A stretch of DNA of 50,900 nt from an uncultured Eubacteriales bacterium (GTDB lineage: Bacteria; Bacillota; Clostridia; Oscillospirales; Acutalibacteraceae). Both the position numbers and the translations under genes were made by a program. The number at the start of each line of letters is the position of its first letter. Positions within the stretch are counted from its first letter, which is position 1. Positions 11,721 to 41,270 of this stretch are shown in pieces. The DNA is taken from positions 1 to 50,900 of the forward strand of contig ONBJ01000012.1 of NCBI GenBank assembly GCA_900316025.1, read 5' to 3'. A model generated the notes under the pieces. That model saw only the letters and a program-made list of their open reading frames with translations, searched no databases and was not told the origin of the DNA.

Positions 11721-11816
11721 GCGATTGCAGATGACCAAAGGCAAAGCCTTTGGTCGCATAAAAGTGCCTTGCACTTTATGCCCTTGCGGAATATTCCGCA
11801 AGGAATCTGCAATCGC
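11721..11816 (+). repeat. Family B cloverleaf element, copy B1
   Basis: Closing stem GCGATTGCAGA (11721-11731) / TCTGCAATCGC (11806-11816) brackets three hairpins. Arm 1 is 11733-11755 (GACCAAAGGC/GCCTTTGGTC). Arm 2 is 11756-11781 (GCATAAA(A)GTGC/GCACTTTATGC). Arm 3 is 11782-11803, a perfect 22-nt palindrome centred on AATATT. Left flank GGTTTCGCTC resembles the flanks of B2 and B3. It sits between znuB and the acyltransferase gene. Confidence 0.9.
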
Positions 11817-11879
11817 AAGCGTGCCCCGTACAAATTGTGCTTACACTGAAAAAATGTGTGTAAATTTGGAGATGGTTTT

Positions 11880-12962
11880 GTGAAAACGTCAAAAAGAAAA
11901 TCAGGAATTGAGCTTCTGAGAATAATAGCAATAATTCAGATTATATTTCTTCACGCTTATCAGTACGGCGGCTTCGGAAAGGCGGCGGCTGATTATTTGT
12001 GCGGAAAAGAAATACTGGTAATGTCTGCATATTCGCTTTGCAGAGCACCTGTTGATGTTTTTGTTATGATTTCGGGTTATTTTATGATAACCTCTGAGTT
12101 CAATATAAGAAAAACGCTCAGACGTGCAAAAAAGCCTTATGAAGCAATGATTTTTTACTCGGCTGCAATATCGCTGATATTTTTTATTGCAGACCCGGGT
12201 CTTATCACACCGCCGAACGTATGCAAGGCGTTTCTGCCGTTTCTTTCAAGAACGTGGTATTTTCTTGACAACTATATTATAATACTGCTGATAAGCCCGT
12301 TCCTGAACAAAATGCTTTCATCTCTCAGCAAAAGACAGTACCTTTACTTTCTGGGAGTTATTTTTGCCGTGGTGAGCGTATGGTCGACACTGGCTCATAT
12401 AGACGGTATAAATCAGGTGGTTTCCACTAAAAAAATACTGGATCAGGAATACGGAAAAAGTCTGGGAGGCTTTCTCCTTATGTACATAACAGGAGGTTAT
12501 CTGAGACTTTTTGTCGGAGATAAAAAGAACGGCAGAGAAAAACCGAACCTTATATATATGGGAGCTTTCCTTGCACTTTGTATGCTTGATTTGGCTCTGT
12601 ACGGCTTTGTACCTCAGTACAGGCACGTTTTCGGAATGTTTGACAATCCGATAGTTCTTTGTGAAAGTGCCTGTCTTATCCTGTTTTTCAGGGATTTCAA
12701 ATTCAGCTCATCGGTAATAAACCTGCTTGCTTCAACTACTCTGGGAGTTTATGCAATACATGAGCATTATTTTATGAGGAAGTGGATATGGTCTGTGCTG
12801 AGCTTTAAGGATAAGGCTCTTTTTGAGGGCTTTATCTTTATTCCTGCGGTTATGGGAGGCTGTATTGCAGTGTTTATATGCTGCTCACTGGTGGAGTTTC
12901 TGAGAGAAAAAGGCTCGATGTTTATACATAAAAAGCTTTCGGAGCGAAAAAGTAAGGATTAA
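11880..12962 (+). CDS. Membrane acyltransferase (acyltransferase-3 / OafA type)
   Basis: About 360 residues with some ten hydrophobic helices. The N-terminus KSGIELLRIIAIIQIIFLHA carries the R...H pattern of membrane O-acyltransferases that decorate cell-surface glycans. GTG at 11880 is chosen because GGAG lies 8 bp upstream and the family motif begins right after it; an upstream ATG at 11856 lacks an RBS. The C-terminus is Lys/Arg-rich. The gene stands alone between a cloverleaf repeat and the pullulanase promoter. The acyl group and acceptor are unknown. Confidence 0.85.
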   Translation: MKTSKRKSGIELLRIIAIIQIIFLHAYQYGGFGKAAADYLCGKEILVMSAYSLCRAPVDVFVMISGYFMITSEFNIRKTLRRAKKPYEAMIFYSAAISLIFFIADPGLITPPNVCKAFLPFLSRTWYFLDNYIIILLISPFLNKMLSSLSKRQYLYFLGVIFAVVSVWSTLAHIDGINQVVSTKKILDQEYGKSLGGFLLMYITGGYLRLFVGDKKNGREKPNLIYMGAFLALCMLDLALYGFVPQYRHVFGMFDNPIVLCESACLILFFRDFKFSSSVINLLASTTLGVYAIHEHYFMRKWIWSVLSFKDKALFEGFIFIPAVMGGCIAVFICCSLVEFLREKGSMFIHKKLSERKSKD

Positions 12963-13011
12963 TTATTGTAATTTATATAAAAAATGAGCAATATATGTAT
13001 TTTATTTTGAA

Positions 13012-13040
13012 TTGTACATTCTGGTATTTTATGATATAAT
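13012..13040 (+). promoter_or_regulatory. Putative sigma-A promoter of the pullulanase gene
   Basis: TTGTAC (13012-13017), 17-bp spacer, TATAAT (13035-13040). The leader of about 105 nt contains a short hairpin (CCGAA...TTCGG, near 13100). I see no clear CcpA-type operator. Confidence 0.65.
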
Positions 13041-13153
13041 GTGCTGTATATTGAACCCGATGCTTTTCGTATGGCGTGTCAGGTGCAGTATACATATTGC
13101 CGAATTATGATTTCGGCTGACGGAATTTTTTTCAATCCGGAGGGAAAATTTTT

Positions 13154-16100
13154 ATGCCAACGTTACAGGAAAGATATGAAACAATAGGCAACTATTATAA
13201 TGCAAGGGAAATATATCCGCTTTATGACGGAGATGACCTCGGAGTGACATACAGTCCTGAGAAAACAACATTCAAGGTATGGGCACCGAGTGCGGTAGCG
13301 GTATCGTTAAATCTGTACAGGACAGGTTCAGATGTAGAGCAGGGCTCAGAAAAAGTTATAACAATGGCTATGGTTAAGGATAACGAAACAGGAGTATGGA
13401 GTATCTGCGTAAAAAGTGATTTAAAGGGATTATATTATACATACAGCGTTCTTGTAGACGGAGTTATGCGTGAAACACAGGACGTTTATTCAAAAGCAGT
13501 AGGCGTAAACGGAAACCGTTCAATGATTCTTGATATGAAGGAAACAAATCCTGAGGGCTGGTCAAAGGACAAGCACGTATTTGTTGACAATCCGACAGAT
13601 GCGGTGATATGGGAAATTCATGTAAGGGATTTTTCCATAAGCAAGTCATCAGGCGTTGAACCGGAAAACAGAGGAAAATATCTCGCATTCACGCAAAGAG
13701 GAACAAAGGTGAACAAACAAAGGGACGTTTCTTCCTGTGTTGAATATCTTGTTGAGCAGGGAATAAACTATGTACACCTTAACCCTGTATTTGATTTCGG
13801 TTCTATAGACGAGGCAATGCACACTTCTCAGTACAACTGGGGATATGACCCCGTAAACTTCAACGTACCCGAAGGCTCATATTCAACCAATGCCGCAAAG
13901 GGAGAGGTAAGAATAAACGAGTTCAAACAGATGGTTCAGGCACTCCATGACAGAGGCATAGGAGTTATTATGGACGTTGTGTATAACCACGTTTATTCCG
14001 CAGGCGACAGTTGTTTTGAAAAGACAGTACCCGGTTATTATTTCAGAATGTACTCACAGTATCAGTTCTTTAACGGAAGCGGATGTGGAAACGTAACTGC
14101 TTCCGATAAGGCAATGTTCAGAAAATATATGATAGACTCTCTGAAATACTGGGCAAACGAATATCATATAGACGGATTCAGATTTGACCTTATGGGCTGT
14201 CACGATTACATTACAATGAATAAAATAAGGGAAGCACTCGATGAAATAGACCCCAGAATAATTATGTACGGAGAGCCTTGGATGGCAGACTGGCTCGGCA
14301 ACGGAATACACGGGGACTATGCGTGTATATCACAGAATGCGTTCAAATTAAGTCCTAGAGTAGGAATGTTCAGCGATAAAATGAGAAATGCCCTCAAAGG
14401 AAATACAGACGATGACAGCATAGGATATATTCAGGGTGCAACAAACGTAAACAATGAAATAAAGGCAGGTATGATGGGCGGCTCAAACGATACCTTCGGA
14501 AGATGGGCAAGAGAGCCTATGCAGTGCGTGACCTATAACTCGGCACACGATAACCTCACACTCTGGGATAAAATTCTCAGATCAAACGGAAACAATGACT
14601 ATAACGGACATAACAGCGTTGTTATTGCACAGAACAAACTTTCAGCCGTAATAGTGCTTACATCTCAGGGAGTGCCTTTCTATCTTGCTGGTGAAGAGTT
14701 TGCAAGAACAAAGTTCGGCGATCACAACAGTTATCGTTCCGCTGACGGAATAAACAAGATAGACTGGACAAGGGTTGTAAGATATGAATACCTCGTAAAA
14801 TATTACAAGGGACTTATGGAAATAAGGGCAGCTTACTCTCCGTTCAGGTCGGGTGACGGTTCAGCGGCACACTACACATACTTTGTAGAAAACGGAAGTG
14901 CAATAGGATATACCGTAAGAAATATGACAAAAAATGCACAGAATGAATGGGGTACAGTTGCAGTTCTTGTAAATAACAGTACAAGTCCCAAAATGCTTGA
15001 ACTCAGAGTAAACGGAGAAAAAACTCCCGATAAATGGGCTGTTGTAGTCAACGGTGACAATGCAGGTCTTGAAAGACTTGGAACAATACACGGAAACAAT
15101 ATAAATGTTCCTCCCCGAAGTGCATTGGTGCTTGTAGATGACAAAACATTCGACAGACTGAAAAAGGCAGACAAGAGCTACCGAACAGTTATAGTAAAGC
15201 ATATAGATGTTGAAACCAACGAGATTATAAAGCAGGTTTCATCACATTACATAAAGGGAACAACCTACAGAACACACCCTCATAAGGAAATGCTTTTTGA
15301 ATATTCTCTCGTTGAAAGCTCAGACAATCCCACAGGAGTTATCGGAGATGATGATGTTGAGGTCAAATACTATTATCAGAGAGATGAAAGAGAGAATTTC
15401 AGAATTTTCAAAAATCAGATAACTGAGGACGGAACATCTGTAGTTCCTGCCAATGAGTGGAGAGTAAAGAAGGGCGATAAATATTCTGTTAAGCCCGATG
15501 CCGTTCATGGCTATGAGCTTGATACGGACAGACTGCCGAGGGCTATAGGAAAAGTAAAGGCTGATACGGTAATTACCTATATTGACAAGCTTGTACCTCC
15601 GTCACCGCTGAAGGTACACTATTTCAACCACAACAACTGGATAGCACCGCACATATACATATACGATGAAAGAGGCGGTTCTGCAAGACCTGTTGTTGAC
15701 CAGTGGCCCGGAACTCAGATGAAGATAGAGAATAACAGCGGCTGGTGGGTATTCGGAGATGTTGATATAGACGAAGCTCAGGTTGTGTTCAGTGATGGTA
15801 TTTTCGGACAGGATCCCGAAGCAAGTCACCCCGGCTACAAGGTATCAGGTGAAGTTTGGATAAAAGACCAAAAAGTATACTTCAATTCAAGAGTAGTTGT
15901 CAGTCACGTTGACGCAAACGGAAACAAGCTTGTTGAAGATTATATTGAACCGGGTATAAACAAGTGCAGTGACGATACCTACAAGGTATTCCCCAGAGAA
16001 GACCTCGGAAATGTTCTCCAGACCATAGGAGATGTTTCGGGAGCATGGAGTACCACTGTAAAGAACGTAATATTTATTTACGAAACAAAGCCTGAAAAGA

Positions 16101-16279
16101 AAAAAGAAGATATCAAGGAAGATACTCAGGAAAATACTCAGGAGAATACTCAGGAAAACAATTCCGAGAGTAACCCTGAGGAAAAACAGGAAAAAAATAC
16201 TGAAACAGAAACAGCAACCCCTGAAACTTCGGAAGATACTCAGACAGCATCTTCCGAAGCTCCTGAAAAAGAGAATTGA
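13154..16279 (+). CDS. pulA: Type I pullulanase, GH13, with MucBP-like and starch-binding modules
   Basis: Debranches alpha-1,6 links in pullulan, amylopectin or glycogen. Order: CBM48-like N-terminal domain (about residues 25-120), GH13 barrel with YNWGYDPVNFNVPEGSYS, DVVYNH (about 273), nucleophile Asp in GFRFDL (about 344), acid/base Glu in YGEPW (about 374) and HDN (about 469). Then come a beta domain, a MucBP-like repeat (about 675-745), a second related unit (755-815), a CBM25/26-like starch-binding module (about 819-905, WPGTQM...GWWVF), another MucBP-like unit (912-980), and a Glu/Thr/Asn-rich low-complexity tail. GGAGGG precedes the ATG. There is no signal peptide and no LPXTG motif, which is odd for such surface-type modules. 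Confidence 0.93.
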   Translation: MPTLQERYETIGNYYNAREIYPLYDGDDLGVTYSPEKTTFKVWAPSAVAVSLNLYRTGSDVEQGSEKVITMAMVKDNETGVWSICVKSDLKGLYYTYSVLVDGVMRETQDVYSKAVGVNGNRSMILDMKETNPEGWSKDKHVFVDNPTDAVIWEIHVRDFSISKSSGVEPENRGKYLAFTQRGTKVNKQRDVSSCVEYLVEQGINYVHLNPVFDFGSIDEAMHTSQYNWGYDPVNFNVPEGSYSTNAAKGEVRINEFKQMVQALHDRGIGVIMDVVYNHVYSAGDSCFEKTVPGYYFRMYSQYQFFNGSGCGNVTASDKAMFRKYMIDSLKYWANEYHIDGFRFDLMGCHDYITMNKIREALDEIDPRIIMYGEPWMADWLGNGIHGDYACISQNAFKLSPRVGMFSDKMRNALKGNTDDDSIGYIQGATNVNNEIKAGMMGGSNDTFGRWAREPMQCVTYNSAHDNLTLWDKILRSNGNNDYNGHNSVVIAQNKLSAVIVLTSQGVPFYLAGEEFARTKFGDHNSYRSADGINKIDWTRVVRYEYLVKYYKGLMEIRAAYSPFRSGDGSAAHYTYFVENGSAIGYTVRNMTKNAQNEWGTVAVLVNNSTSPKMLELRVNGEKTPDKWAVVVNGDNAGLERLGTIHGNNINVPPRSALVLVDDKTFDRLKKADKSYRTVIVKHIDVETNEIIKQVSSHYIKGTTYRTHPHKEMLFEYSLVESSDNPTGVIGDDDVEVKYYYQRDERENFRIFKNQITEDGTSVVPANEWRVKKGDKYSVKPDAVHGYELDTDRLPRAIGKVKADTVITYIDKLVPPSPLKVHYFNHNNWIAPHIYIYDERGGSARPVVDQWPGTQMKIENNSGWWVFGDVDIDEAQVVFSDGIFGQDPEASHPGYKVSGEVWIKDQKVYFNSRVVVSHVDANGNKLVEDYIEPGINKCSDDTYKVFPREDLGNVLQTIGDVSGAWSTTVKNVIFIYETKPEKKKEDIKEDTQENTQENTQENNSESNPEEKQEKNTETETATPETSEDTQTASSEAPEKEN

Positions 16280-16307
16280 TTTACATAATTTATTGACTTA
16301 AAATCCT

Positions 16308-16391
16308 TAAAGTTTAGGTCAAGCCTTTTCAAAGGCTTGCGGTTTCCAAAGGCGGAGCCTTTGGTGGGATTTTTAAGGGCAAAGCCCTTAA
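16308..16391 (+). repeat. Family A three-hairpin repeat, copy 3
   Basis: Plus-orientation copy between the pullulanase and gpsA genes. Hairpin 2 is CCAAAGG/CCTTTGG and hairpin 3 TAAGGGC/GCCCTTA. GTTTA near the left edge can pair with TAAAC just after hairpin 3. The repeat ends about 15 bp before the gpsA start, so it forms the upstream edge of that gene's ribosome binding region. Confidence 0.92.
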
Positions 16392-16406
16392 ACGAGAGAA
16401 TATATT

Positions 16407-17369
16407 ATGAACATTTCGCTGCTCGGCTGCGGAAGATGGGGCTCTTTTATAGCATGGTATCTTGATAAGACAGGTCACAGCGTATATTCATGGGGACTTG
16501 AAAGCGAAAAGGTATTTCAGGACTTGAAAAGAGAACGCAAAAATATGTACGTGAATTTCAGTGATGACATAGTTATAACTTCTGACCTGACGCAGGCAGT
16601 GGAGCATGCGGAGGTTATGATAATTTCCATAAGTTCACAGGCACTCAGCGGATTTATGGAAAAACTCTCAAAGGAGAATCTCCACGGAAAAGCAATAGTT
16701 CTTTGTATGAAGGGAATCGAAGAAGGAACAGGAAAAAGACTTACACAGATTGTCGGCGAGTACGTTGATACCGAAAAAACACCTGTAGCCGTATGGGTAG
16801 GGCCGGGTCACCCTCAGGACTTCGTAAGAGGAATACCCAACTGTATGGTTATCGATTCCGAAAATGAGCAGCTTAAAATAAAGCTTGTAAATGAATTTTC
16901 AAGTGAACTTATAAGATTTTACATCGGAAAAGATCTGATAGGAACAGAGGTCGGAGCAGCCGCCAAAAACGTTATAGGTATTGCGGCAGGTATGCTTGAC
17001 GGTATGAACTGTACCTCTCTCAAGGGAGCACTTATGTCAAGGGGAACGATGGAAATATCAAGGCTCATAAAGGCTATGGGCGGAAACGAGTTGTCGGCAT
17101 TCGGACTTTGTCATCTTGGAGATTATGAAGCCACACTTTTTTCTCAGTTCAGCCACAACCGCAGATTTGGCGAAATGTTCGTAAAGGGCGAAAGGTTCGA
17201 CAAGCTTGCCGAAGGAGTTTCCACAACAAACGCTCTTGTAAAACTTGGCGAAATGTACAATGTTGATTTGCCTATAGTAAATGCTGTAAGTCAGGTTATA
17301 AACTTCGGCAAAGACCCCAGACAGATATTATCTGATATGTTTTTGCGTAAGATTAAGAACGAATTCTGA
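16407..17369 (+). CDS. gpsA: NAD(P)-dependent glycerol-3-phosphate dehydrogenase
   Basis: Reduces dihydroxyacetone phosphate to sn-glycerol 3-phosphate for phospholipid synthesis. The N-terminal Rossmann motif LLGCGRWGSFIAWYL is clear. A GPGHPQDF segment occupies the place of the usual GPSHAEE loop, KNVIGIAAGMLDGM carries the family Lys, and LCHLGDYEATLFSQFSHNRRFGE matches the C-terminal substrate domain. At 320 residues it is slightly shorter than typical (about 330-340). The variant GPGHPQDF and LCHLGDYE sequences differ from textbook GpsA, so this is a divergent clade. The start follows a family A repeat, with only a weak GAGAG as RBS. Confidence 0.85.
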   Translation: MNISLLGCGRWGSFIAWYLDKTGHSVYSWGLESEKVFQDLKRERKNMYVNFSDDIVITSDLTQAVEHAEVMIISISSQALSGFMEKLSKENLHGKAIVLCMKGIEEGTGKRLTQIVGEYVDTEKTPVAVWVGPGHPQDFVRGIPNCMVIDSENEQLKIKLVNEFSSELIRFYIGKDLIGTEVGAAAKNVIGIAAGMLDGMNCTSLKGALMSRGTMEISRLIKAMGGNELSAFGLCHLGDYEATLFSQFSHNRRFGEMFVKGERFDKLAEGVSTTNALVKLGEMYNVDLPIVNAVSQVINFGKDPRQILSDMFLRKIKNEF

Positions 17370-17397
17370 TTTATTTCTGTTAAGATTAAAATTTTAC

Positions 17398-17426
17398 TTG
17401 ACTTTTTATACGAAAAAGCGTATAAA
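17398..17426 (+). promoter_or_regulatory. Sigma-A promoter of the ilvA T-box leader
   Basis: TTGACT (17398-17403), 17-bp spacer, TATAAA (17421-17426). A small palindrome (TTATACG/CGTATAA) fills the spacer and overlaps the -10, so it could also be an operator or the end of the gpsA transcript. Confidence 0.7.
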
Positions 17427-17433
17427 TTGTTAT

Positions 17434-17727
17434 AGTGTTCAATTAACTAAAAAGCTGTGATAAGGATAAGGAGCAGTCATCTTTATTTTCAGAGAGCCGA
17501 TGTTTTGGTGGAAATCGGCAGGGGAGGACTGAATACCATCACCTTTAAGCTGACCTCTGAACGTTTGAAAAAAACAAGTAGGAGAGTTCGGGTTTCTCCC
17601 GTTACAGGGAAAGCATTTTCAATATTTTTATTTGATGATGCTGCAAAGAGGTCTGTTTTTCAGGCAATTAAGGTGGTACCACGGAATGTTCGTCTTTCGT
17701 CCTTTTTTCGGGACGAAAGACTTTTTT
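17434..17727 (+). ncRNA. T-box riboswitch (probable isoleucine specifier) of ilvA
   Basis: The T-box core is unmistakable: AAGGTGGTACCACGGA at 17670-17685, followed by a terminator. A long 5' region before it (from about 17450) fits Stem I. Within it, GAATACCATCACC (17531-17543) offers the specifier ATC (Ile, 17538-17540) followed by A. Uncharged tRNA-Ile would favour the antiterminator and switch on ilvA. The Ile assignment is inferred from position and from the downstream gene. Confidence 0.93.
17692..17727 (+). terminator. T-box attenuator terminator
   Basis: GTCTTTCGTCC (17692-17702) pairs with GGACGAAAGAC (17711-17721), followed by six T (17722-17727). It lies directly after the T-box sequence, as expected for the alternative to the antiterminator. 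Confidence 0.93.
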
Positions 17728-17803
17728 ATGTTGGTTGTACCGAATGACGCTTTGACAGACCTCGGTATCAGTTCTATAATTTTCTTCAGGAGATGTTTTT
17801 TTA

Positions 17804-19003
17804 ATGCTAACTTTAGACAGAATTTATCACGCATCATACGTCTTGAAAAATGCTGTAAGACCTACGGATATTATAAAATGCTCTGACGATGTTGTCCCGG
17901 GTGTAAAGGTTTATCTGAAAACAGAAAACCTTCAGGTTACGGGTTCGTTCAAGGTAAGAGGAGCATACTATAAAATATCACAGCTTACAGATGAGGAAAA
18001 GGCAAAGGGTGTTATAGCCTGTTCGGCAGGAAATCACGCTCAGGGTGTTGCACGTGCGGCTACAAAAATGGGTATAAAATCCCTGATATGTATTCCCGAT
18101 GCCGCTCCGATAAGCAAAATAGAAGCAACAAAGCGTCTTGGTGCTGAAGTTTGTCTTGTAAAGGGTACATATGATGATGCCTATGCAAAAGCCGTTGAAC
18201 TTCAGAAGGAAAGCGGAGCTACATTTATACACCCGTTTGACGATGACCTTGTTATCGCAGGACAGGGAACAATAGGACTTGAAATTATCAATACAAAGCC
18301 TGATATTGACGCAGTGGTTGTTCCCGTAGGCGGAGGCGGACTTGTTTCGGGTGTTGCATTTGCAATAAAGTCGCTTGACCCCAATATAAAGGTATACGGT
18401 GTTCAGGCAGAGGGTGCTCCCTCAATGGTAAACAGCGTAAAGCACGGACAAATCGAAACTCTGGACAGCGTTCATACTTTTCAGGACGGTATAGCCGTAA
18501 AGACACCAGGAACACTTACCTATGAAATAACCAGCAAATATGTAGATGACCTTATCACGGTAACAGATGATGAATGTGCAGCAGCAATTCTCAAGCTTAT
18601 AGAACGTCAGAAACTCGTAACAGAGGGTGCGGGAGCAAATGCCTTTGCGGCAGTTATGTTCAATAAAATTCCCGACCTTCAGGGCAAAAAGGTATGCTGT
18701 CTGCTTTCGGGAGGAAATATAGATGTTACTATACTTTCAAGGGTTATCAACAGAGGTTTGCAGATGAGCGGACGACTTGTTGACCTTACAATAGAGCTTA
18801 TAGACAAACCGGGTCAGCTTCAGGAGGTTTCCGACATTATAGCAAATATGGGCGGAAATGTAGTTTCTGTTGCTCATGACCGTGCTGATTTAAGTTCGGA
18901 TATAAATGCCTGCTATCTGCGTATAAGTATGGAAACAAGAAATCAGGAACATGCAGATGCAATAAAAAATGCCTTTAACGAAAGAGGCTACAAAATAATC
19001 TGA
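17804..19003 (+). CDS. ilvA: Threonine ammonia-lyase with ACT domain
   Basis: Converts threonine to 2-oxobutanoate, the first step of isoleucine synthesis, through enamine/imine intermediates. The PLP Lys is residue 50 in TGSFKVRGA. SAGNHAQGVA binds the substrate carboxylate side, and VGGGGLVSG is the glycine-rich phosphate loop. One ACT domain (GRLVDLTIELIDKPGQLQEV, from about residue 325) closes the 399-residue protein, resembling the shorter clostridial form. AGGAG precedes the ATG. Control by an Ile-type T-box supports a biosynthetic rather than catabolic role. ridA follows 83 bp downstream. Confidence 0.95.
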   Translation: MLTLDRIYHASYVLKNAVRPTDIIKCSDDVVPGVKVYLKTENLQVTGSFKVRGAYYKISQLTDEEKAKGVIACSAGNHAQGVARAATKMGIKSLICIPDAAPISKIEATKRLGAEVCLVKGTYDDAYAKAVELQKESGATFIHPFDDDLVIAGQGTIGLEIINTKPDIDAVVVPVGGGGLVSGVAFAIKSLDPNIKVYGVQAEGAPSMVNSVKHGQIETLDSVHTFQDGIAVKTPGTLTYEITSKYVDDLITVTDDECAAAILKLIERQKLVTEGAGANAFAAVMFNKIPDLQGKKVCCLLSGGNIDVTILSRVINRGLQMSGRLVDLTIELIDKPGQLQEVSDIIANMGGNVVSVAHDRADLSSDINACYLRISMETRNQEHADAIKNAFNERGYKII

Positions 19004-19086
19004 TTTATAAAAATGCGTCTACAGGATTTTTTCGTAATGCTGAAATCCTGTATGTAATAATATTTGACAATGATGGAGGAATAAAA

Positions 19087-19461: not shown

Positions 19462-19502
19462 GAGCCTTTCTAAATGAAAAAGTTATAAATATACGTTTCA
19501 GG

Positions 19503-19530
19503 CACTCGACTGTCAGGTCGGGTGTTTTTT
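19503..19530 (+). terminator. Terminator of the ilvA-ridA unit
   Basis: CACTCGAC (19503-19510) / GTCGGGTG (19517-19524) with one T-G wobble, then six T. Confidence 0.85.
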
Positions 19531-19593
19531 CTTGTCCGTAAAAGCATAATGTATATTTTTCCGGATTTGCTGATTTATAGTTTAAAGTAGCTT

Positions 19594-19628: not shown

Positions 19629-19653
19629 ATATCAAGAGGGGAGGTGAGGTATA

Positions 19654-24357: not shown

Positions 24358-24499
24358 GAAGCCGTCAGCCGTGGCGGTGATTTCAGCCCCTCGTGAAATT
24401 TATGTTTCACGAGGGGGGTCTTTTAAGCTGTGAAGCTTAAAAGACTGCTCAAGGATAAATCCTTGAGCAGCTGAAATCACCGCCACGGCTGACGGCTTC
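24358..24499. repeat. Family B cloverleaf element, copy B4 (perfect four-way junction)
   Basis: A 29-bp perfect closing stem (24358-24386 with 24471-24499) brackets three perfect hairpins: 24387-24416 (CCCCTCGTGAAA / complement, loop TTTATG), 24418-24445 (GTCTTTTAAGCT / complement, loop GTGA) and 24446-24469 (TGCTCAAGGA / complement, loop TAAA). Only one or two bases are unpaired at the junction. The stem next to the junction reads GGTGATTTCAG, against GGCGATTGCAG in B2 and B3. It lies between the convergent ATPase and SDR genes, where it could act as a bidirectional terminator, although T tracts are weak. Confidence 0.95.
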
Positions 24500-33668: not shown

Positions 33669-33746
33669 GGGTTTCACCCTTAAAAATCCCACGAGGGCTC
33701 TGCCCTCGACCCGCAAGCCTTTGAAAAGGCTTGACCTAAACTTTAT
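33662..33746 (-). repeat. Family A three-hairpin repeat, copy 5 (inverted, overlaps argD stop)
   Basis: Hairpin 3 (TTAAGGGT/ACCCTTAA) and hairpin 2 (CGAGGGC/GCCCTCG) match the copy 4 variants. AGTTTA (33662-33667) and TAAACT (33737-33742) can close the whole element as a 6-bp stem. The left edge includes the argD stop codon at 33666-33668. It separates argD from argF. Confidence 0.92.
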
Positions 33747-33793
33747 GTTTTTGTCATTTATATATTTAAATAAATCACAAAGGAGAAATTTTT

Positions 33794-34702
33794 ATGAAGC
33801 ATTTTTTAAAGCTGCTTGATTACAGCGGAAAAGAAATTATTGATATGCTGAATCTGGCAGACCAGCTCAAATATGAGCAGAAACACGGAATTGAGCATAA
33901 GCTGCTCGCAGGAAAAACACTGGGTATGATATTTCAGAAAGCATCTACAAGAACAAGGGTATCGTTTGAAGTAGGAATGTATCAGCTCGGAGGTTATCCG
34001 CTGTTTTTGTCGGCTAATGATATGCAGATAGGCAGGGGAGAGCCTGTGGAGGATACTGCAAGAGTACTTTCAAGATTTATAGACGGAATTATGATAAGAA
34101 CGTTTGAACAGGCTGAGGTTGAAACACTTGCTAAGTATGGTTCTATACCTGTAATAAACGGACTTACTGATTTTTGCCACCCCTGTCAGGTAATGGCTGA
34201 TTTGATGACGATAAGGGAGTATAAAGGAACGCTTGAGGGACTTAAACTCTGCTTTGTAGGTGACGGAAACAATATGGCAAATTCCCTGATAGTAGGAGGA
34301 CTTAAAACGGGAATGAAAGTTACAATAGCTTGTCCCGAAGGTTATGAGCCACCCGAAGAAATACTGGAATTTGCAAAGCAGTACGGCGATAAATTCGGAA
34401 TGTACCGCTCACCCAAGGAAGCCGCACAGAATGCAGATGTAGTTTATACAGATGTATGGGCATCTATGGGACAGGAGCAGGAGGCTAAGAAAAGAGCTGA
34501 GGCTTTCAAGGGTTTCTGTGTGGATTCCGACCTTATGAGCGTAACCAATAAGGATTGTATGGTGCTTCACTGTCTGCCTGCACACCGTGGGGAGGAAATT
34601 ACGGCTGAGGTTCTGGAAGCTCATGCAAATGAAATTTTTGATGAAGCTGAAAACAGACTTCACGCACAAAAGGCAGTACTTGTTACTATGATGAAAGACT
34701 AA
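33794..34702 (+). CDS. argF: Ornithine carbamoyltransferase
   Basis: Makes citrulline from ornithine and carbamoyl phosphate. The carbamoyl phosphate motif STRTRVSFEVGMYQLGG, HPCQVMADL and the ornithine motif HCLPAHRGEEI are intact. 302 residues is normal. AAAGGAG precedes the ATG. It closes the arginine genes, and the M13 peptidase gene starts 3 bp after its stop. An anabolic role is supported by the operon; no arcA/arcC is present. Confidence 0.97.
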   Translation: MKHFLKLLDYSGKEIIDMLNLADQLKYEQKHGIEHKLLAGKTLGMIFQKASTRTRVSFEVGMYQLGGYPLFLSANDMQIGRGEPVEDTARVLSRFIDGIMIRTFEQAEVETLAKYGSIPVINGLTDFCHPCQVMADLMTIREYKGTLEGLKLCFVGDGNNMANSLIVGGLKTGMKVTIACPEGYEPPEEILEFAKQYGDKFGMYRSPKEAAQNADVVYTDVWASMGQEQEAKKRAEAFKGFCVDSDLMSVTNKDCMVLHCLPAHRGEEITAEVLEAHANEIFDEAENRLHAQKAVLVTMMKD

Positions 34703-34705
34703 AAT

Positions 34706-36640
34706 ATGAATATACGAAGAAATTTTCTTAAAATTGTTTCTCTTGTAATGATATTTGCAGTGTTGCAGGGAGTTCTGACTTCATGCGGTACTTCGGATAA
34801 AACAGAGAGTAAAGCAGAAAGTAAAAACGATACTGAAACAGTTTCGCTTAAAGATGATTTCTATACGGCAGTAAATTATGACTGGCTGGAATCTGCCGAT
34901 ATTCCTGAAAACGGATTAAATTCGGATTACTACGATATATGCAGCAAAAACATATCGGAATTTTATAAAAATTATGTTGAGGGACTTTCTTCAAAAAAAG
35001 AGCTTTCAAAACAGGAAAGCAGGCTTCTTGTGCTTTATGAGCAGTTTATGGAAGGACAGTATGAACAAAGTCTTGAAACGGTAAAAAAGTATGTGCAGGA
35101 GATAGAAAAAGCAAAAAGTCTGAGCGATATGGAAAAGCTGTATTCGGATAAAAGAATTTCTGTTTATAACGGACTTCTTAATTTTGAAATTTCAGGCTCG
35201 AAAAGTTCATATATACTCAGACTTAATGCGGTTACTTTGAACGGAACTGATATTACAAAGGTATCAACTTATTCGTTTGATGAAAAAATCCGTGAGCAGT
35301 ATCTTAATTCGCTTAAAGGTGTGATACTGAAAAGTGGTATCTACAGTGGGGAGAAAGCTGATGCTATAGCTGAAAGTGCAGTAAGTACCGAAACTAAAAT
35401 TTTACAGGGTAAGCTTTCGGAAAATAAAGACAGCGGTTTCTCGTTATATGATTCCAAAAGTGATTTTTTATTCAACGTAGATTTGCACAGTATACTTGAC
35501 GGTATGGGCTATGAAAGAGATTATCAGAACATAGCGTGTGATGATTTTTATATGGATTTGCTCAACAATGAGATTTTTACTGAGGAAAATGTCGAGGCTC
35601 TGAAAAATTACCTTATAGCAGGTGTCATATACAGAGCGTTGGGAAGTTCGGAATATAACGAAAAAATCGGTGTGACATTTGAAATAATTGCAGATTTCTA
35701 TATGAAAGATGTTCTTGTAAAAGGTTATCTTGACGAAAATATAACCGATGAGGACGTGGATTACCTGTCGCAAATGGCTGAAAAAATAATTTCAGTGTAC
35801 AAGAAAAGAATTGATAAGATTTCTTACCTTTCGGACAGTACAAAATCAAAAGCGAAAAAAAAGCTTGATAATCTGAATGTTATAGTTGCACGTCCGCAAA
35901 CTCTTATAGATTACTCGGAAGCTGATGTCAGCGATAAAAATACATATATTCAGAACTGCGAGAACTGCATAATTGCAAAAAGAAACGAGCATAACAGATT
36001 TCTGAAAACGGAATTTTCAAGGGATAAGATTGTTTTTGATACTATGGAGCTGAATGCCTATAACAGTTTCGGAAGCAACTCAATTATTATAGATGCAGGT
36101 ATAATGCAGGACTGCGTTTACAGTACCGAAAAATCTTTTGAGGAAAATCTCGGAAGTATAGGTACTGTAATTGCTCACGAGGTATCGCATACACTGGATA
36201 TAACAGGAAGCGTCTATGATGAGAACGGAGTTTATAAGGGCTGGTGTAACGTAAATGACCGTAAAGCCTATATCGAAAAGGTAAATCAGCTAAAGGATTT
36301 TATGGCTAAGCAGGGCGAAAAGGACGGCATAGAGCTTAATGCCACAGCAACCAGAGGTGAAGATATTGCCGACCTGACAGGTATTCAGTGCTGTGTGGAG
36401 GTTCTCAAAGAGCAGAAAAACCCTGATTATAAAAAATTCTTTACGGAATATGCTGTTATTCACAGGGAAAAGTGTACAGACGAGGTTCTTGAAAAGCGTA
36501 TAGAATACGACACACATTCGCCGTCAAAGTACAGGGTGAATGTACCGGTTCAGCAGATAGCTGAATTTTATACAGCCTTTGATATAAAAGAGGGTGACGG
36601 TATGTACGTTCCCGAAAGTGAAAGAATAAGCGTATGGTAA
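34706..36640 (+). CDS. M13-family (neprilysin-like) metallopeptidase lipoprotein
   Basis: A secreted zinc endopeptidase of 644 residues, anchored by lipid. Signal with lipobox LTSC (acylated Cys about residue 27). The zinc site is HEVSH (about 492), with the third ligand Glu in GEDIAD (about 552). The M13 C-terminal signature is PSKYRVNVPVQQIAEFYTAFDIKEGDGMYV, ending SVW. M13 enzymes degrade oligopeptides. It starts 3 bp after argF with a weak RBS, so it is probably translated from the same message; peptide-derived amino acids and arginine synthesis may share control, but this is inference. A cloverleaf repeat follows. Confidence 0.93.
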   Translation: MNIRRNFLKIVSLVMIFAVLQGVLTSCGTSDKTESKAESKNDTETVSLKDDFYTAVNYDWLESADIPENGLNSDYYDICSKNISEFYKNYVEGLSSKKELSKQESRLLVLYEQFMEGQYEQSLETVKKYVQEIEKAKSLSDMEKLYSDKRISVYNGLLNFEISGSKSSYILRLNAVTLNGTDITKVSTYSFDEKIREQYLNSLKGVILKSGIYSGEKADAIAESAVSTETKILQGKLSENKDSGFSLYDSKSDFLFNVDLHSILDGMGYERDYQNIACDDFYMDLLNNEIFTEENVEALKNYLIAGVIYRALGSSEYNEKIGVTFEIIADFYMKDVLVKGYLDENITDEDVDYLSQMAEKIISVYKKRIDKISYLSDSTKSKAKKKLDNLNVIVARPQTLIDYSEADVSDKNTYIQNCENCIIAKRNEHNRFLKTEFSRDKIVFDTMELNAYNSFGSNSIIIDAGIMQDCVYSTEKSFEENLGSIGTVIAHEVSHTLDITGSVYDENGVYKGWCNVNDRKAYIEKVNQLKDFMAKQGEKDGIELNATATRGEDIADLTGIQCCVEVLKEQKNPDYKKFFTEYAVIHREKCTDEVLEKRIEYDTHSPSKYRVNVPVQQIAEFYTAFDIKEGDGMYVPESERISVW

Positions 36641-36681
36641 GAAACGGCTGTTTATCAGACTTGCGGCTTCGCTCAAAGTGA

Positions 36682-36776
36682 GGCGATTGCAGACCGTCAA
36701 AAGCTTTGCTTTTGACGAAACCTGAAAAATTCAGGCTTTAGCGGCAGACTTTTGTCTGCCGCAGTCTGCAATCGCC
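36682..36776 (+). repeat. Family B cloverleaf element, copy B2
   Basis: Closing stem GGCGATTGCAGAC (36682-36694) / GTCTGCAATCGCC (36764-36776). Arms: 36695-36717 (CGTCAAAAGC/GCTTTTGACG), about 36719-36737 (CCTGAA/TTCAGG core) and 36741-36762 (GCGGCAGAC/GTCTGCCGC). Left flank GGCTTCGCTC (36665-36674) is shared with B3. It lies about 42 bp past the M13 peptidase stop, and a T tract follows at 36793-36799. Confidence 0.93.
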
Positions 36777-36836
36777 GCATAGCTGACGCAGGTTTTTTTA
36801 TTTTCAGAATAATAAAAAACATAAGGCGGTGGCAGT

Positions 36837-37910
36837 ATGCCAAAAAGGGTATTGATAGGTATGAGCGGCGGTGTGGACAGCTCCGTAGCTGCACTTATGC
36901 TTCTTGAAAGCGGATATAGGGCAGACGGAGCAACTCTCAGACTTTTTACCGATGAAGATATAGGAATGAATGACAGAGGAAGAACTTGCTGTTCACTGGA
37001 AGATGTCGAAAACGCAAGAACGGTATGTTATAAGCTTGGTATAAGACATTATGTATTTAATTTTTCGGGAGATTTCAGAAAAAAAGTAATAGAAAGTTTT
37101 GCAGAAAGCTATAAAAGAGGCGAAACGCCAAATCCCTGCATAGAATGCAACAGGTACATAAAGTTTCCGAAAATGCTTGAAAGAGCAAGGTTACTCGAAT
37201 ATGATTATATAGCAACAGGTCACTATGTACGCAGAGAAGAAACTTCGGGCGGCAGGGTACTGATAAAAAAGGCTGTTGACAGTACAAAGGATCAGACTTA
37301 TGTTTTGTATGTTCTTACGCAGGACGTATTGAAACGGACGCTTTTTCCGCTCGGAGGTATGACAAAGGAGCAGTCCAGAGAGCTTGCCGAAAAAAACGGA
37401 CTTATAAATGCAAGAAAGCCTGACAGTCAGGACATATGCTTTATAAAGGACGGTGACTATGCAGGATTTCTTGAAAACACAATGGGAGTAAAATCTCCCA
37501 AGGGAAGTTTTATATATAAGGACGGAACTGTTCTGGGGGAACATAAGGGGATTATACATTATACTATAGGACAGAGAAAAGGACTGGGTATAAGTTATGC
37601 ACACCCGATTTTTGTATTAGATAAAAACCCGTATGATAATATTGTAACACTTGGGGATAACGAAGACCTTTACACGAGCCGTCTTAAAGCTGACAGGCTG
37701 AACTGGATAGCACTGGAAAAGCCTGTTGACGGTATGAGAGTAAAGGCAAAAACACGCTACAGTCAGAAAGAAAGCTGTGCTACTGTTCATGTAATATCAG
37801 AAGATGAGGTAGAGGTTGAGTTTGACGAAAAGCAAAGAGCAATAACAAAAGGACAGTCGGTAGTATTCTATGAGGACGAATATGTTGTCGGCGGTGGAAC
37901 GATAAAATAG
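36837..37910 (+). CDS. mnmA: tRNA 2-thiouridine(34) synthase
   Basis: Adds sulfur to the wobble uridine of tRNA-Lys, -Glu and -Gln. The PP-loop GMSGGVDSSVAA is at the N-terminus. The two catalytic Cys are in NPCIECNRYIKF and SQDICFI, and DQTYVLYVL with FPLG are typical. 357 residues is normal. GGCGGTGG precedes the ATG at 36837. The family's usual partner, a cysteine desulfurase/NifU pair, is not adjacent here. A GNAT gene follows 10 bp downstream. Confidence 0.95.
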   Translation: MPKRVLIGMSGGVDSSVAALMLLESGYRADGATLRLFTDEDIGMNDRGRTCCSLEDVENARTVCYKLGIRHYVFNFSGDFRKKVIESFAESYKRGETPNPCIECNRYIKFPKMLERARLLEYDYIATGHYVRREETSGGRVLIKKAVDSTKDQTYVLYVLTQDVLKRTLFPLGGMTKEQSRELAEKNGLINARKPDSQDICFIKDGDYAGFLENTMGVKSPKGSFIYKDGTVLGEHKGIIHYTIGQRKGLGISYAHPIFVLDKNPYDNIVTLGDNEDLYTSRLKADRLNWIALEKPVDGMRVKAKTRYSQKESCATVHVISEDEVEVEFDEKQRAITKGQSVVFYEDEYVVGGGTIK

Positions 37911-37920
37911 GAGTATTATT

Positions 37921-38394
37921 ATGATAAGACGTGCAAAAGAAGAGGATATAAATGGGATAAACAGACTGCTTTTTCAGGTTCAGCAAATTCACGCAGAAAA
38001 AAGGTCAGATATATTCAGAAAGGGACAAAAGAAGTATACCGATGATGAAATTTTAAGAATAATAAATGATGATGCACGCCCTGTGTTTGTTTTTACGGAC
38101 GAAAAAGAAAATATACTGGGATATGTATTCTGCATATATCAGATAACAAAAGACAGCAGGTCATTGAGCGACAGGAGAGTAATATACATAGACGATTTAT
38201 GCGTAGATGAAGCTTTCAGAGGAAAGCATATAGGTTATGAACTGTGCAGATACGTTGAAAATTTCGGAAAAGAAAACGGCTTTGACAGCATAACTCTGAA
38301 TGTATGGAATTTGAATGAAGGTGCTTACGGATTTTATAATAAATGTGGTTTTGAGCCGTTAAAGGTAACTATGGAAAAAAGAATAAACGTTTAA
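37921..38394 (+). CDS. GNAT-family N-acetyltransferase
   Basis: 157 residues. VIYIDDLCVDEAFRGKHIGYELCRYVENF contains the acetyl-CoA loop (RGKHIG), and AYGFYNKCGFEPLKVTMEKRI is a typical GNAT end. The substrate is unknown. AGGAG (37911-37915) gives a good RBS. The gene starts 10 bp after mnmA, suggesting co-transcription, but that does not reveal a target. It is not close to the GNAT at 32031. Confidence 0.85.
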   Translation: MIRRAKEEDINGINRLLFQVQQIHAEKRSDIFRKGQKKYTDDEILRIINDDARPVFVFTDEKENILGYVFCIYQITKDSRSLSDRRVIYIDDLCVDEAFRGKHIGYELCRYVENFGKENGFDSITLNVWNLNEGAYGFYNKCGFEPLKVTMEKRINV

Positions 38395-38425
38395 GCGATA
38401 TAAATAAAAATCAATTTCAAATTTC

Positions 38426-38454
38426 TTGACAATATATGATATTGGGAGTAAAAT
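38426..38454 (+). promoter_or_regulatory. Sigma-A promoter of alaS
   Basis: TTGACA (38426-38431), 17-bp spacer, TAAAAT (38449-38454), about 40 bp before the start codon. There is no T-box in this short leader. Confidence 0.8.
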
Positions 38455-38496
38455 TGAAACGTTATTTCGTTAATATGCTATACGAGGAGAATTGCT

Positions 38497-41121
38497 ATGA
38501 AGTGGACAGGCTTGAATGAGCTTAGAGAAAAATATTTATCTTTTTTTGAAAGTAAGGGACATCTGCGTTTGCCGAGTTTTTCGCTCGTACCGAAGGACGA
38601 CAAAAGCTTGCTTCTGATAAATTCGGGTATGGCTCCCATGAAGAAGTACTTTACGGGAGAGATTACTCCTCCCAGAAAAAGAGTTACAACGTGTCAGAAA
38701 TGTATTCGTACACCTGATATTGAGCGTGTAGGAATAACCGCACGTCACGGTACATTTTTTGAGATGCTGGGAAATTTCTCTTTCGGGGATTATTTCAAGC
38801 ATGAGGCTACTGCATGGGCTTGGGAGTTTTTTACAAAGGTACTTGAAATTCCTGAGGAAAAGCTTTATGTTTCCGTTTACGAGAAGGACGACGAAGCATA
38901 CGACATATGGACAAAGGAAATAGGTGTTGACCCCTCACATATGGTTCATCTCGGAAAAGAGGATAATTTCTGGGAACACGGCTCAGGACCCTGCGGCCCC
39001 TGTTCTGAAATTTACTTTGACAGAGGTGCCGATAAGGGCTGCGGAAGTCCCGACTGTGCGGTAGGCTGTGAGTGCGACAGATATGTTGAAGTCTGGAATC
39101 TTGTTTTCACACAGTTTGAGAATGACGGAAACGGAAACTATACTCCTCTTGACCACCCCAACATAGATACAGGTATGGGACTTGAACGTCTTGCCTGCGT
39201 TATGCAGAACGTTGACAATCTTTTTCTGGTTGATACAGTCAAAGGAATTATGGACAAGGTTATTGAGATTGTCGGTGTAAATTACGGCGATAGTGAAAAG
39301 TCAGATATTTCACTGCGTGTAATAACCGATCATATAAGAAGCACAACATTTATGATAAGCGATGGTGTTATGCCTTCCAATGAGGGAAAAGGCTATGTTC
39401 TGAGAAGGCTTTTAAGACGTGCTTCAAGACATGGTAAGCTGCTGGGTTATCATAAGCCTTTCCTGTTCAAGGTTGCCGAAGAGGTTATCAGATGCAGCAA
39501 AGACGCATATCCTGAGCTTGCAGAAAAGCATGACCTTATAATCGAGGTTATCAGAAAAGAAGAAGAGCTTTTCATAAAGACAATAGATTTGGGTATGAAT
39601 ATACTCAACGAAATTATAAATAAAAAGGATATAACCGAGCTTTCAGGAGAAAGTGCCTTTAAGCTCAATGATACATACGGTTTCCCTATAGACCTTACAA
39701 GGGAAATTCTTGCGGAAAAAGGCATAAAGGTAGATGAAAAAAGATACCTCGAACTTCTTGCAGAACAAAAGCAGAGAGCAAGAAATGCCCGTAAAAATGC
39801 AGGTGCTGAGGCTTGGCTCAGCGACAATACCGACCTTACAGATTTGCAGAAAACCGTGTTTACAGGATATGATACACTCTCGGACTGCGGCAAAGTTCTT
39901 GCATTGATAAAGGACGGAGAAAGAACGGAAAATGCTTCCGCAGGTGAAAAAATAGCAATCGTTCTGGACAAAACACCTTTTTATGCTGAAAGCGGCGGTC
40001 AGGTCGGCGATGTAGGTACGGCTAAAAGCGATAAATGTGAGCTTGAAATTTTCAATACAGTAAAGGATCAGACAGGCTGTTTTGTTCATTATGCGGAGAT
40101 AACAGACGGTTTCATTTCAGTAGGGGATACACTTTCGTGCGAGGTTGACAGAAGCTTCAGGGAAAATGTTATGAGAAACCATACAGGTGCTCATATACTT
40201 CAGGCTGCATTGCGTAAGGTTCTGGGAAGTCACTGCGAACAGGCAGGTCAGCTCGTAAACGAAAACAGGGTAAGATTTGACTTCACTCACTTCTCAGCAT
40301 TAAAACCTGATGAGATAGCTCAGGTCGAAAGGCTGTGTAATGAAGAAATACTCAGAGCTGCTCCTGTGGAAACAAAGGAAATGCCTATCGAGGAAGCTAA
40401 GAAAATAGGTGCAATGGCTCTCTTCGGAGAAAAATACGGCGATGTTGTCCGTGTTGTAAAAGCAGGGGATTTTTCAACGGAGCTTTGCGGCGGTACTCAC
40501 GTTTCAAATACAGGGCAGATAGGTATGTTCAAGATACTTTCCGAAACCTCAGTTGCTTCGGGAGTGAGAAGAATTGAAGCCGTTACAGGTATTAATTCAG
40601 TTTACGAATACAACAAGCTTATTTTCGGTGTTTCGCAGATGGTAAGCATACTCAAAATAAATAACCCTCACGAATTTCTTAAAGGGGCAGAGCATATCGC
40701 ATCTCTTATGAAGGCTAAGGACAATGAAATCGCAGAGCTTAAAAACAAGCTTGCTTCAAGTTCTGTAGACAGTATATTGAACAGTGCAAAGCAGATAAAA
40801 TCCTTTAAGGTTATGAGTACAAAATTAAAGGGTGCAGATGCTAACGTTATCCGCTCAATCTGTTCAACCGTAATAGATAAAGAAACCGATGCTGTTCTTG
40901 TTGTGGCAAGCGTTGCGGACGGAAAGGCTACAATAGCTTGTGCGTGCGGTAAGAATGCACGCAGTAATGGTGCTGCCGCAGGAAAAATCGTAAAGGCTGT
41001 AGCTCAGTTGGCAGGCGGAAACGGCGGCGGAAAGTCTGATATTGCTATGGCAGGTGCAAAAGACCTCAGCAAAATTGATACGGCTTTGTCGAAGCTTACC
41101 GAAATAGTCGAAGCTTTGTAA
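38497..41121 (+). CDS. alaS: Alanyl-tRNA synthetase
   Basis: Class II synthetase of 874 residues, the usual length. Catalytic domain: FFESKGHLRLPSFSLVP, INSGMAPMKKYFTGE, then HGSGPCGPCSEIY. The editing domain has the zinc ligands HTGAHI and CGGTH, and the C-terminal DHHA1-like oligomerisation domain ends AGGNGGGKSDIAMAGAKD. A Cys-rich stretch (CGSPDCAVGCECD) is visible near residues 190-200. GAGGAG precedes the ATG. Monocistronic; followed by a family B cloverleaf. Confidence 0.97.
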   Translation: MKWTGLNELREKYLSFFESKGHLRLPSFSLVPKDDKSLLLINSGMAPMKKYFTGEITPPRKRVTTCQKCIRTPDIERVGITARHGTFFEMLGNFSFGDYFKHEATAWAWEFFTKVLEIPEEKLYVSVYEKDDEAYDIWTKEIGVDPSHMVHLGKEDNFWEHGSGPCGPCSEIYFDRGADKGCGSPDCAVGCECDRYVEVWNLVFTQFENDGNGNYTPLDHPNIDTGMGLERLACVMQNVDNLFLVDTVKGIMDKVIEIVGVNYGDSEKSDISLRVITDHIRSTTFMISDGVMPSNEGKGYVLRRLLRRASRHGKLLGYHKPFLFKVAEEVIRCSKDAYPELAEKHDLIIEVIRKEEELFIKTIDLGMNILNEIINKKDITELSGESAFKLNDTYGFPIDLTREILAEKGIKVDEKRYLELLAEQKQRARNARKNAGAEAWLSDNTDLTDLQKTVFTGYDTLSDCGKVLALIKDGERTENASAGEKIAIVLDKTPFYAESGGQVGDVGTAKSDKCELEIFNTVKDQTGCFVHYAEITDGFISVGDTLSCEVDRSFRENVMRNHTGAHILQAALRKVLGSHCEQAGQLVNENRVRFDFTHFSALKPDEIAQVERLCNEEILRAAPVETKEMPIEEAKKIGAMALFGEKYGDVVRVVKAGDFSTELCGGTHVSNTGQIGMFKILSETSVASGVRRIEAVTGINSVYEYNKLIFGVSQMVSILKINNPHEFLKGAEHIASLMKAKDNEIAELKNKLASSSVDSILNSAKQIKSFKVMSTKLKGADANVIRSICSTVIDKETDAVLVVASVADGKATIACACGKNARSNGAAAGKIVKAVAQLAGGNGGGKSDIAMAGAKDLSKIDTALSKLTEIVEAL

Positions 41122-41166
41122 TTTACCCGAAGTAAGGTTCAGTTCAAAACCTATGGCTTCGCTCGT

Positions 41167-41270
41167 GCGGCGATTGCAGACGCTCGTGACTGCGTTCACG
41201 AGCTGATAAATTGCTTGAAAGCAATTTATCGAATTCAAATACAAAGTATTTGAATGTCTGCAATCGCCGC
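41167..41270 (+). repeat. Family B cloverleaf element, copy B3
   Basis: Closing stem GCGGCGATTGCAGAC (41167-41181) / GTCTGCAATCGCCGC (41256-41270). Three perfect arms: 41182-41203 (GCTCGTGA/TCACGAGC), 41205-41230 (GATAAATTGCTT/AAGCAATTTATC) and 41233-41255 (ATTCAAATAC/GTATTTGAAT). Left flank GGCTTCGCTC as in B2. It is 45 bp after the alaS stop. Confidence 0.95.

What the first reader, a model, noticed from the sequence alone, without database searches (positions are those of the whole stretch)
11721..41270. Family B: four cloverleaf elements with a conserved closing stem but unrelated, still perfectly paired inner arms
Copies at 11721, 24358, 36682 and 41167 all have one closing stem and exactly three hairpins. 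The stem next to the junction keeps GG(C/T)GATT(G/T)CAG, and where B4 differs both strands changed. The arms have no shared sequence, yet every copy keeps the pairing. Conservation of shape without sequence means the inner arms are re-made or diverge fast under structural selection. All four begin within about 50 bp after a stop codon, and three share the left flank GGYTTCGCTC. I do not know a described repeat family with this behaviour.
Basis: partly seen in the sequence, partly recalled or inferred. Interest (0 to 1): 0.85.

Follow-up and report, generated by a model that had tools for sequence, protein, structure and literature searches.

The report
Cloverleaf DNA repeats with mirrored arms
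Two related, uncultured bacteria carry a short DNA repeat in many copies (135 by a strict count in one of them) that folds into an almost perfectly paired cloverleaf whose two halves change together, most likely because DNA copying uses one half to rewrite the other, so the shape lasts while the letters drift.

Summary
A model search over 175 kb (window plus stretches of two sister-species contigs) gave 21 copies: 20 with three arms, one with two, and 4 of 883 pairs not Watson-Crick. In 99 of 163 copies the four-way junction has no unpaired base.

The arms are not unrelated: they align to one A-B-C family. But they change symmetrically. Between sister-species orthologues 35 of 926 stem positions differ, while only 5 of 1867 pairs are not Watson-Crick; 15 of 97 loops are exact reverse complements; 2 of 36 cores are inverted, one of them the window copy at 41167. 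G-T and A-C mismatches are equally rare (7 and 6 of 4859), whereas tRNAs give 19 G-U of 304, so RNA folding is unlikely to keep the pairing. Best mechanism: template switching between inverted-repeat arms, which corrects mismatches and flips spacers, acting on an old intergenic repeat. How it spreads and what it does are unknown. Rfam gave nothing for the copies searched and no Y1 transposase was found. New variant of a known kind.

The parts
11720..11816 (+). copy B1: closing stem 11721-11732 / 11805-11816, arm A 11733-11755, arm B 11756-11781 (one-base bulge), arm C 11782-11803; canonical orientation A-B-C
   Evidence: R1 72.6 bits (this copy was in the training set). Absent from the orthologous gap of the sister species (31 bp there)
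11706..11715 (+). left-flank 'tail' GGTTTCGCTC of B1
   Evidence: family-wide tail count
24358..24499 (-). copy B4: divergent member with a perfect 30-bp closing stem 24358-24387 / 24470-24499, arms 24388-24415, 24418-24445, 24446-24469
   Evidence: R1 47.0 bits (not in the training set)
36682..36776 (+). copy B2: closing stem 36682-36694 / 36764-36776, arm A 36695-36717, arm B 36718-36738 (one A-C mismatch), arm C 36741-36762
   Evidence: R1 76.5 bits (training set). The gap is about 50 bp without element in congener G003
36665..36674 (+). left-flank tail GGCTTCGCTC of B2
41167..41270 (-). copy B3: closing stem 41167-41181 / 41256-41270, arm C 41182-41203, arm B 41205-41230, arm A 41233-41255; the core is inverted relative to the orthologue in RUG213 (L101:4726-4829)
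   Evidence: R1 70.8 bits on the minus strand (training set)
41155..41164 (+). left-flank tail GGCTTCGCTC of B3, here beside arm C

Best explanation
This is a multicopy, non-coding, mostly intergenic DNA element of about 95 bp: a closing inverted repeat around three abutting hairpins, which a single strand can fold into a nearly or fully paired four-way junction. Shown: 135 strict copies in the own genome and at least 82 distinct ones in a sister species; at least 38 of 81 fetched G000 copies have a counterpart at the orthologous place; stems drift symmetrically; loops and sometimes the whole core are found reverse-complemented. Inferred: the drift in concert is caused by template switching between inverted-repeat arms during replication. 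One switch copies one arm onto the other, which fixes a mismatch in a single step; a switch that passes through the spacer flips it. The same process acts on 3-4-nt loops (often) and on the roughly 74-bp core (rarely). Also inferred: mismatched forms are mostly removed, because stems diverge four to five times more slowly than flanks while loops diverge like flanks. Not known: how the copies spread (mostly before the two species split) and whether they serve the host.
For: Pairing: 16 of 4859 arm pairs non-Watson-Crick in 163 copies, G-T 7, A-C 6, other 3 (2 of 489 arms hide a bulge); 4 of 883 in the 21-copy sample, none G-T; tRNA control 19 G-U of 304. Concert: orthologue stems 35 of 926 positions changed, 5 of 1867 pairs non-WC, transition:transversion 15:20, like the flanks' 152:159 (p=0.59). 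Loops: 15 of 97 exact reverse complements, null mean 7.1, p=0.002; the 13 non-homopolymer cases were reached in 0 of 20000 shuffles; no loop was classed as plain reverse or complement. Four loop inversions come with a mirrored stem change in the same arm (one search lists five; one is misregistered). Core inversion: 2 of 36 orthologue pairs, and the tail lies beside arm A in 59 and beside arm C in 19 copies. Rates: stems 3.8%, loops 19.7%, flanks 15.8% or 18.8%. Precedent: yeast template switching homogenises arms and inverts spacers (PMC8604942, abstract and passages); the rRNA study PMC8794818 (passages) says a compensated stem plus inverted loop would be the strongest support and found it extremely rare.
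Against: The neutral version predicts stems changing as fast as loops; they change four to five times more slowly, so selection or biased correction must be added. Loop words come from a small vocabulary, so about 7 of the 15 reverse complements are expected by chance. Only two genomes and one divergence were compared, so the direction of change is not polarised, and copies shared by the two genomes are counted twice in the 163. The single orthologous copy in G002/G003 shows two one-sided changes and no mirrored one, so self-correction may not be universal. Replication was not observed.
Confidence: 0.7

Rival explanations
1. The transcribed RNA cloverleaf is the selected object: a 3'-UTR structure that stabilises mRNA or ends transcription, kept by ordinary compensatory mutation.
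For: By a simple ORF-based gene call, 103 of 139 classed gaps are tandem and 25 convergent, and in tandem gaps the element starts a median 40 bp after the upstream stop. The tail lies on the downstream side in 33 of 51 tandem cases (p=0.049).
Against: Wobble pairs are missing: G-T 7 against A-C 6 of 4859, no G-T among 883, against 6% G-U in 14 tRNAs. Loops and whole cores invert. Orientation to transcription is 54:49. No T-run enrichment outward, 21% against a 22% A-run control in 324 flanks. No Rfam match in the window copies or in four loci with copies.
Confidence: 0.1
2. A cellular protein that binds or cuts four-way junctions or cruciforms (an HU-like protein, a junction resolvase or a recombinase) recognises the shape, and shape is selected on DNA. 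Inversion is then its product.
For: 99 of 163 copies have no unpaired base at the junction; 20 of 21 in the 175-kb sample have exactly three arms; stems change less than flanks, 35 of 926 against 311 of 1973.
Against: Flipping of 3-4-nt loops is not what site-specific recombinases are known for (recalled). Core inversion is rarer than loop inversion, as expected if distance limits template switching. I did not search for such a protein.
Confidence: 0.3
3. It is a MITE or REP-type element moved in trans by a known transposase.
For: Dispersed intergenic copies with arm subfamilies, terminal inverted repeat, presence/absence at two sites between the sister species.
Against: No Y1 transposase (PF01797) match in either element-rich genome. 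The two presence/absence sites are imprecise and show no target-site duplication by eye. No half element in the fetched G000/G005 stretches. Other transposase families were not tested.
Confidence: 0.25
4. Loss of the hairpin nuclease SbcCD let the palindromes accumulate.
For: SbcD has no match in G000 and G005 (G005 is 90% complete) and is over the cut-off in the other 4 of 4 congeners. SbcC gives 133-262 bits in those four and only a 20.5-bit fragment in G000 and nothing in G005, though no genome of the six reaches that model's curated cut-off.
Against: In the family only 125 of 300 genomes are over the SbcD cut-off, and 55 have no match at all. No closed elements in 296.5 kb of 10 genomes without SbcD match, and hairpin density does not track SbcD (medians 0.14 and 0.17 per kb). 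G001 has SbcD and 1.27 hairpins per kb. G002 and G003 have SbcD and share one copy.
Confidence: 0.2

Closest known systems
Double-hairpin elements of fungal mitochondrial genomes (Paquin et al. 2000, recalled; mentioned as suggested mobile elements in PMC5910586, passages)
   Same: Short dispersed palindromic DNA, suggested to be mobile, with hairpins of changing sequence (the last point recalled)
   Different: Two hairpins in organelle genomes; here three arms plus a closing stem in bacterial contigs, with loop and core inversion measured
REP / BIME / REPIN elements with RAYT transposase (PMC2817692, PMC3733652, PMC3116915; title and start of abstract in the listings only)
   Same: More than 100 copies, extragenic, palindromic
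   Different: REPs are 20-40 bp, most with GTAG or CGTC tags; no Y1_Tnp match here
Template-switch mutations at inverted repeats (PMC8604942, PMC8794818; passages read)
   Same: Arm homogenisation, spacer inversion, one-step compensatory changes
   Different: Described there as scattered mutations in yeast genes and in rRNA; here a whole repeat family evolves this way, at nested scales
Minute inversions at hairpins in chloroplast non-coding DNA (Kelchner and Wendel 1996; only the citation seen, in PMC5910586)
   Same: Hairpin loops flip in place
   Different: Not a repeat family; no nested inversion of a three-arm core (recalled)

Membership tests
REP/RAYT elements | RAYT (Y1 transposase) gene in the genome | tested here: not met
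   PF01797: no match in G000 and G005; matches in G001 and G002; 5 of 14 control genomes ring
REP/RAYT elements | 20-40 bp single palindrome | tested here: not met
   about 95 bp with three arms plus closing stem
MITE | terminal inverted repeats, many copies, no gene inside | tested here: met
MITE | target-site duplication at a clean empty site | tested here: inconclusive
   two sites present in one species and absent in the other, both imprecise
MITE | cognate transposase with matching ends | tested here: inconclusive
   only PF01797 tested; no half element in the fetched stretches
Structured RNA family in Rfam | match to a curated model | tested here: not met
   window gave only T-box and TPP at gathering score; four loci with copies gave none at E<=0.5
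Structured RNA (general) | G-U pairs tolerated on the transcribed strand | tested here: not met
   G-T 7, A-C 6 of 4859; no G-T among 883
Intrinsic terminator | hairpin followed by a T-run | tested here: not met
   T-run of 5 or more outward 21%, A-run control 22%, 324 flanks
Template-switch evolution | homogenised arms and inverted spacers | tested here: met
   the one G002/G003 copy is an exception
Mitochondrial double-hairpin elements | two hairpins in organelle DNA | tested here: not met
   three arms in 20 of 21 copies, on contigs of bacterial genomes

The most novel reading that the evidence does not exclude
The element is a selfish DNA whose inherited trait is a shape, a fully paired four-way junction, and not a sequence. 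Template switching keeps rewriting both arms so the shape repairs itself when it is copied, and a junction-recognising activity spreads it by shape alone, so copies can lose all sequence likeness and stay functional.
Probability: 0.25. Interest if true: 0.88.

Novelty: new variant of a known kind. Interest (0 to 1): 0.66.

Why it matters
Template switching is usually inferred from rare, scattered mutation clusters. Here one bacterial genome offers over a hundred copies of a four-helix element in which mismatch correction, loop flipping and inversion of the whole core can all be scored, with spacers from 3 to about 74 nt. That makes the rate, distance dependence and genetic control of template switching directly measurable. 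It also warns that covariation in stems, normally taken as evidence for a functional RNA, can arise at the DNA level.

Tried and rejected
RNA-structure family: set aside on wobble counts and lack of Rfam matches. Terminator: no T-run excess. RAYT-driven REP: no Y1_Tnp match. SbcCD loss as sufficient cause: a promising genus pattern that the family base rate and the 20-genome sample do not support. Phage origin: the one viral contig with copies, two of them, is 99.85% identical over 5.4 kb to a stretch of the own genome (L139), with a related stretch in G005 (82%), so it says nothing about phage spread. First count of mirrored stem changes (59) contained misregistered arms (pairs 63 and 64 by eye); the gap-aware recount (35 of 926) replaces it. 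11 of 108 arms were left out of the comparison because their length differed by an odd number, and 2 of 38 orthologue pairs (56, 73) because the cut segment missed one end of the element. Literature: searches for a described family showed none in the rows listed; I read listings, plus passages of PMC2267715 on stem-loop families and the abstract and outline of PMC6649704. The search for RUG213 found no paper. The library lacks most subscription journals, so this is no proof of absence.
Full report
What was checked. The window is contig C44 of an unnamed 2.08-Mb genome, G000. Its nearest relative with many copies, G005, has contig lengths found in the record 'uncultured Clostridiales bacterium RUG213', so I treat them as the same assembly. 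That RUG stands for a rumen genome is recalled; the habitat of G000 is not known to me.

How many. The strict pattern CGATTGCAG..CTGCAATCG with a 57-87 nt gap occurs 135 times in G000, and its reversed control 0 times. In the same search G002 and G003 gave one weak match each, and G001 and G004 none among the 150 candidates scored. In 398 genomes of the family, where only 10 candidates per genome were scored with stricter filters, G000, G005 and G003 matched at 1e-4 and the G002 match was lost; absence elsewhere is therefore only provisional. R1 over the window and 124 kb of G005 gave 21 copies in 175 kb, 4 and 17. At least 6 of the 21 were among its training copies. These densities extrapolate to roughly 160-250 per genome. 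A sequence-free structure finder for perfect arms gave 2 three-arm elements in the window, 14 (and one two-arm) in the 124 kb of G005 and 1 in 43 kb of G003. It gave none in 106 kb of G001, 16 kb of G002, 69 kb of G004 or 419 kb of other species, and none in 622 kb of 20 other family genomes or 60 window shuffles.

Anatomy. Among 163 distinct fetched copies (81 G000, 82 G005, chosen by a strict closing-stem match) all parse as three hairpins. Of the 21 found by R1, 20 have three arms and one has two; it lacks the middle arm. 462 of 489 arms have loops of 3 or 4 nt, and 2 of 489 hide a bulge. Arms mostly abut, and 99 of 163 copies have no unpaired base at the junction. Arms have a fixed A-B-C order and recognisable family words, with 71, 122 and 98 distinct stems. 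Closing stems also vary in a mirrored way among the 21 (for example GATTGCAG, GGTTGCAG, GATTTCCG), so their constancy in the finding is partly a search effect. A tail near GCGGCTTCGCTC lies within 40 bp beside arm A in 59, beside arm C in 19, both in 6 and neither in 78 of 162 copies; a reverse-strand control gave 1 and 1. That fits an ancestral A-side tail with about a quarter of tailed cores inverted since. Copies shared by the two genomes are counted twice here.

Not RNA. Of 4859 arm pairs 16 are not Watson-Crick: G-T 7, A-C 6, other 3; G000 alone gives G-T 5, A-C 4, other 1 of 2423. The parser treats G-T and A-C alike, so their near equality is a fair test; RNA selection would favour G-T on one strand. 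In the 883 pairs of the 21 copies there are 4 mismatches, none G-T. Fourteen tRNAs from the fetched stretches give 19 G-U and 0 A-C of 304 pairs. By a simple ORF-based gene call, copies sit in tandem (103), convergent (25) or divergent (11) gaps; 13 overlap a called ORF and 11 could not be classed. Orientation to transcription is 54:49. The tail shows a slight downstream bias, 33 of 51 (p=0.049). Outward T-runs are no commoner than A-runs. Rfam gives nothing for the copies searched.

Evolution in concert. For 38 G000 copies both flanks fall in one fetched G005 stretch, and each has an element there (four were missed by the strict pattern but are visible in the printed segments). G005 stretches were fetched because they hold elements, so this is not a retention rate. 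Of 36 pairs that could be aligned, 34 have the same orientation and 2 are inverted: window 41171 against L101, and L175:4482 against L211. In 97 comparable arms 35 of 926 stem positions differ, and both species are still paired there (5 of 1867 pairs non-WC). Transition:transversion is 15:20 in stems and 152:159 in flanks. Loops: 32 identical, 15 exact reverse complements, 50 other, none classed as plain reverse or complement. Shuffling loops among non-orthologous arms gives 7.1 reverse complements on average (p=0.002); for the 13 non-homopolymer cases none of 20000 shuffles reached the count. In the best orientation loops differ at 19.7% and 30-nt flanks at 18.8% (15.8% with the more lenient gaps), against 3.8% in stems (p about 1e-23 if positions were independent). 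Among 36 copies with a counterpart found, the orthologue is closer than the best paralogue in 31 (one of the five exceptions, copy 49 at 43% identity, looks like a lookup error of my script). So most of the spread seems to predate the split of the two species.

Reading. One process explains near-perfect pairing, mirrored changes without a wobble path, loop flips and rarer core flips: template switching between inverted-repeat arms. That it homogenises arms and inverts spacers was found in yeast (PMC8604942, abstract and passages). The rRNA study PMC8794818 (passages) names a compensated stem with an inverted loop as the strongest support and reports it as extremely rare. Four such arms appear here among 97 (one search lists five; one is an alignment artefact). 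The slow stems suggest that pairing is also protected, by selection against unpaired forms or by biased correction; this part is inference.

Presence and absence. B1 is missing from the orthologous G005 gap (31 bp against 182). A G005 element at L202:2522 is missing from the G000 gap in L140. Both sites are imprecise, so insertion and deletion cannot be told apart. Whether G005 has counterparts of B2 and B4 was not covered by the stretches fetched. G003 and G002 share one orthologous cloverleaf at a gene end that G001 lacks, so the element is probably older than its amplification. There the two differ by two one-sided changes and no mirrored one, a result against universal self-correction; both are fragmented assemblies of 76-84% completeness.

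SbcCD. G000 and G005 lack an SbcD match, and the four congeners are over the cut-off (SbcC similar but below its curated cut-off in all six). But only 125 of 300 family genomes are over the SbcD cut-off, samples of ten genomes without and ten with SbcD show no difference in hairpins and no closed elements, and hairpin-rich G001 has SbcD. Loss may be permissive; it is not sufficient.

Verdict. Real, ordinary in its parts (palindromic repeats, template switching) and unusual in the whole: a bacterial repeat family that keeps a four-way shape while letters drift in mirrored steps. The spreading mechanism and any host function are open.

Noticed in passing
window about 16290-16390; also L299 (G001) and many G005 loci: A second palindromic repeat of about 100 bp with two perfect hairpins (TCCAAAGGC..GCCTTTGG and TTTAAGGGC..GCCCTTAAA type), seen also in congener G001, where perfect hairpins of 9 bp or more reach 1.27 per kb. 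Its hairpin words resemble arms A and B of the cloverleaf by eye.
   Followed up: partly
L304; G000:C24:19800-25900 (L139): A prophage-like gene cluster (terminase, portal and baseplate-like ORFs, judged by eye, no family search) carries two cloverleaf copies between its genes and is found in a viral contig collection; a related stretch is in G005 at 82%.
   Followed up: partly
window 19462 against L280:6830-6966: A synteny break between the two species lies directly beside a cloverleaf element.
   Followed up: no
L281:8689-8815: A copy whose middle arm has grown to a 21-bp stem; the only mismatch among its parsed pairs is one A-C.
   Followed up: no
window 17448-17707 and 49312-49412: T-box leader and TPP riboswitch, both over the Rfam gathering score.
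   Followed up: no
window 926-972 and 45358-45394: Perfect single hairpins of 19 and 17 bp, possibly ordinary terminators.
   Followed up: no
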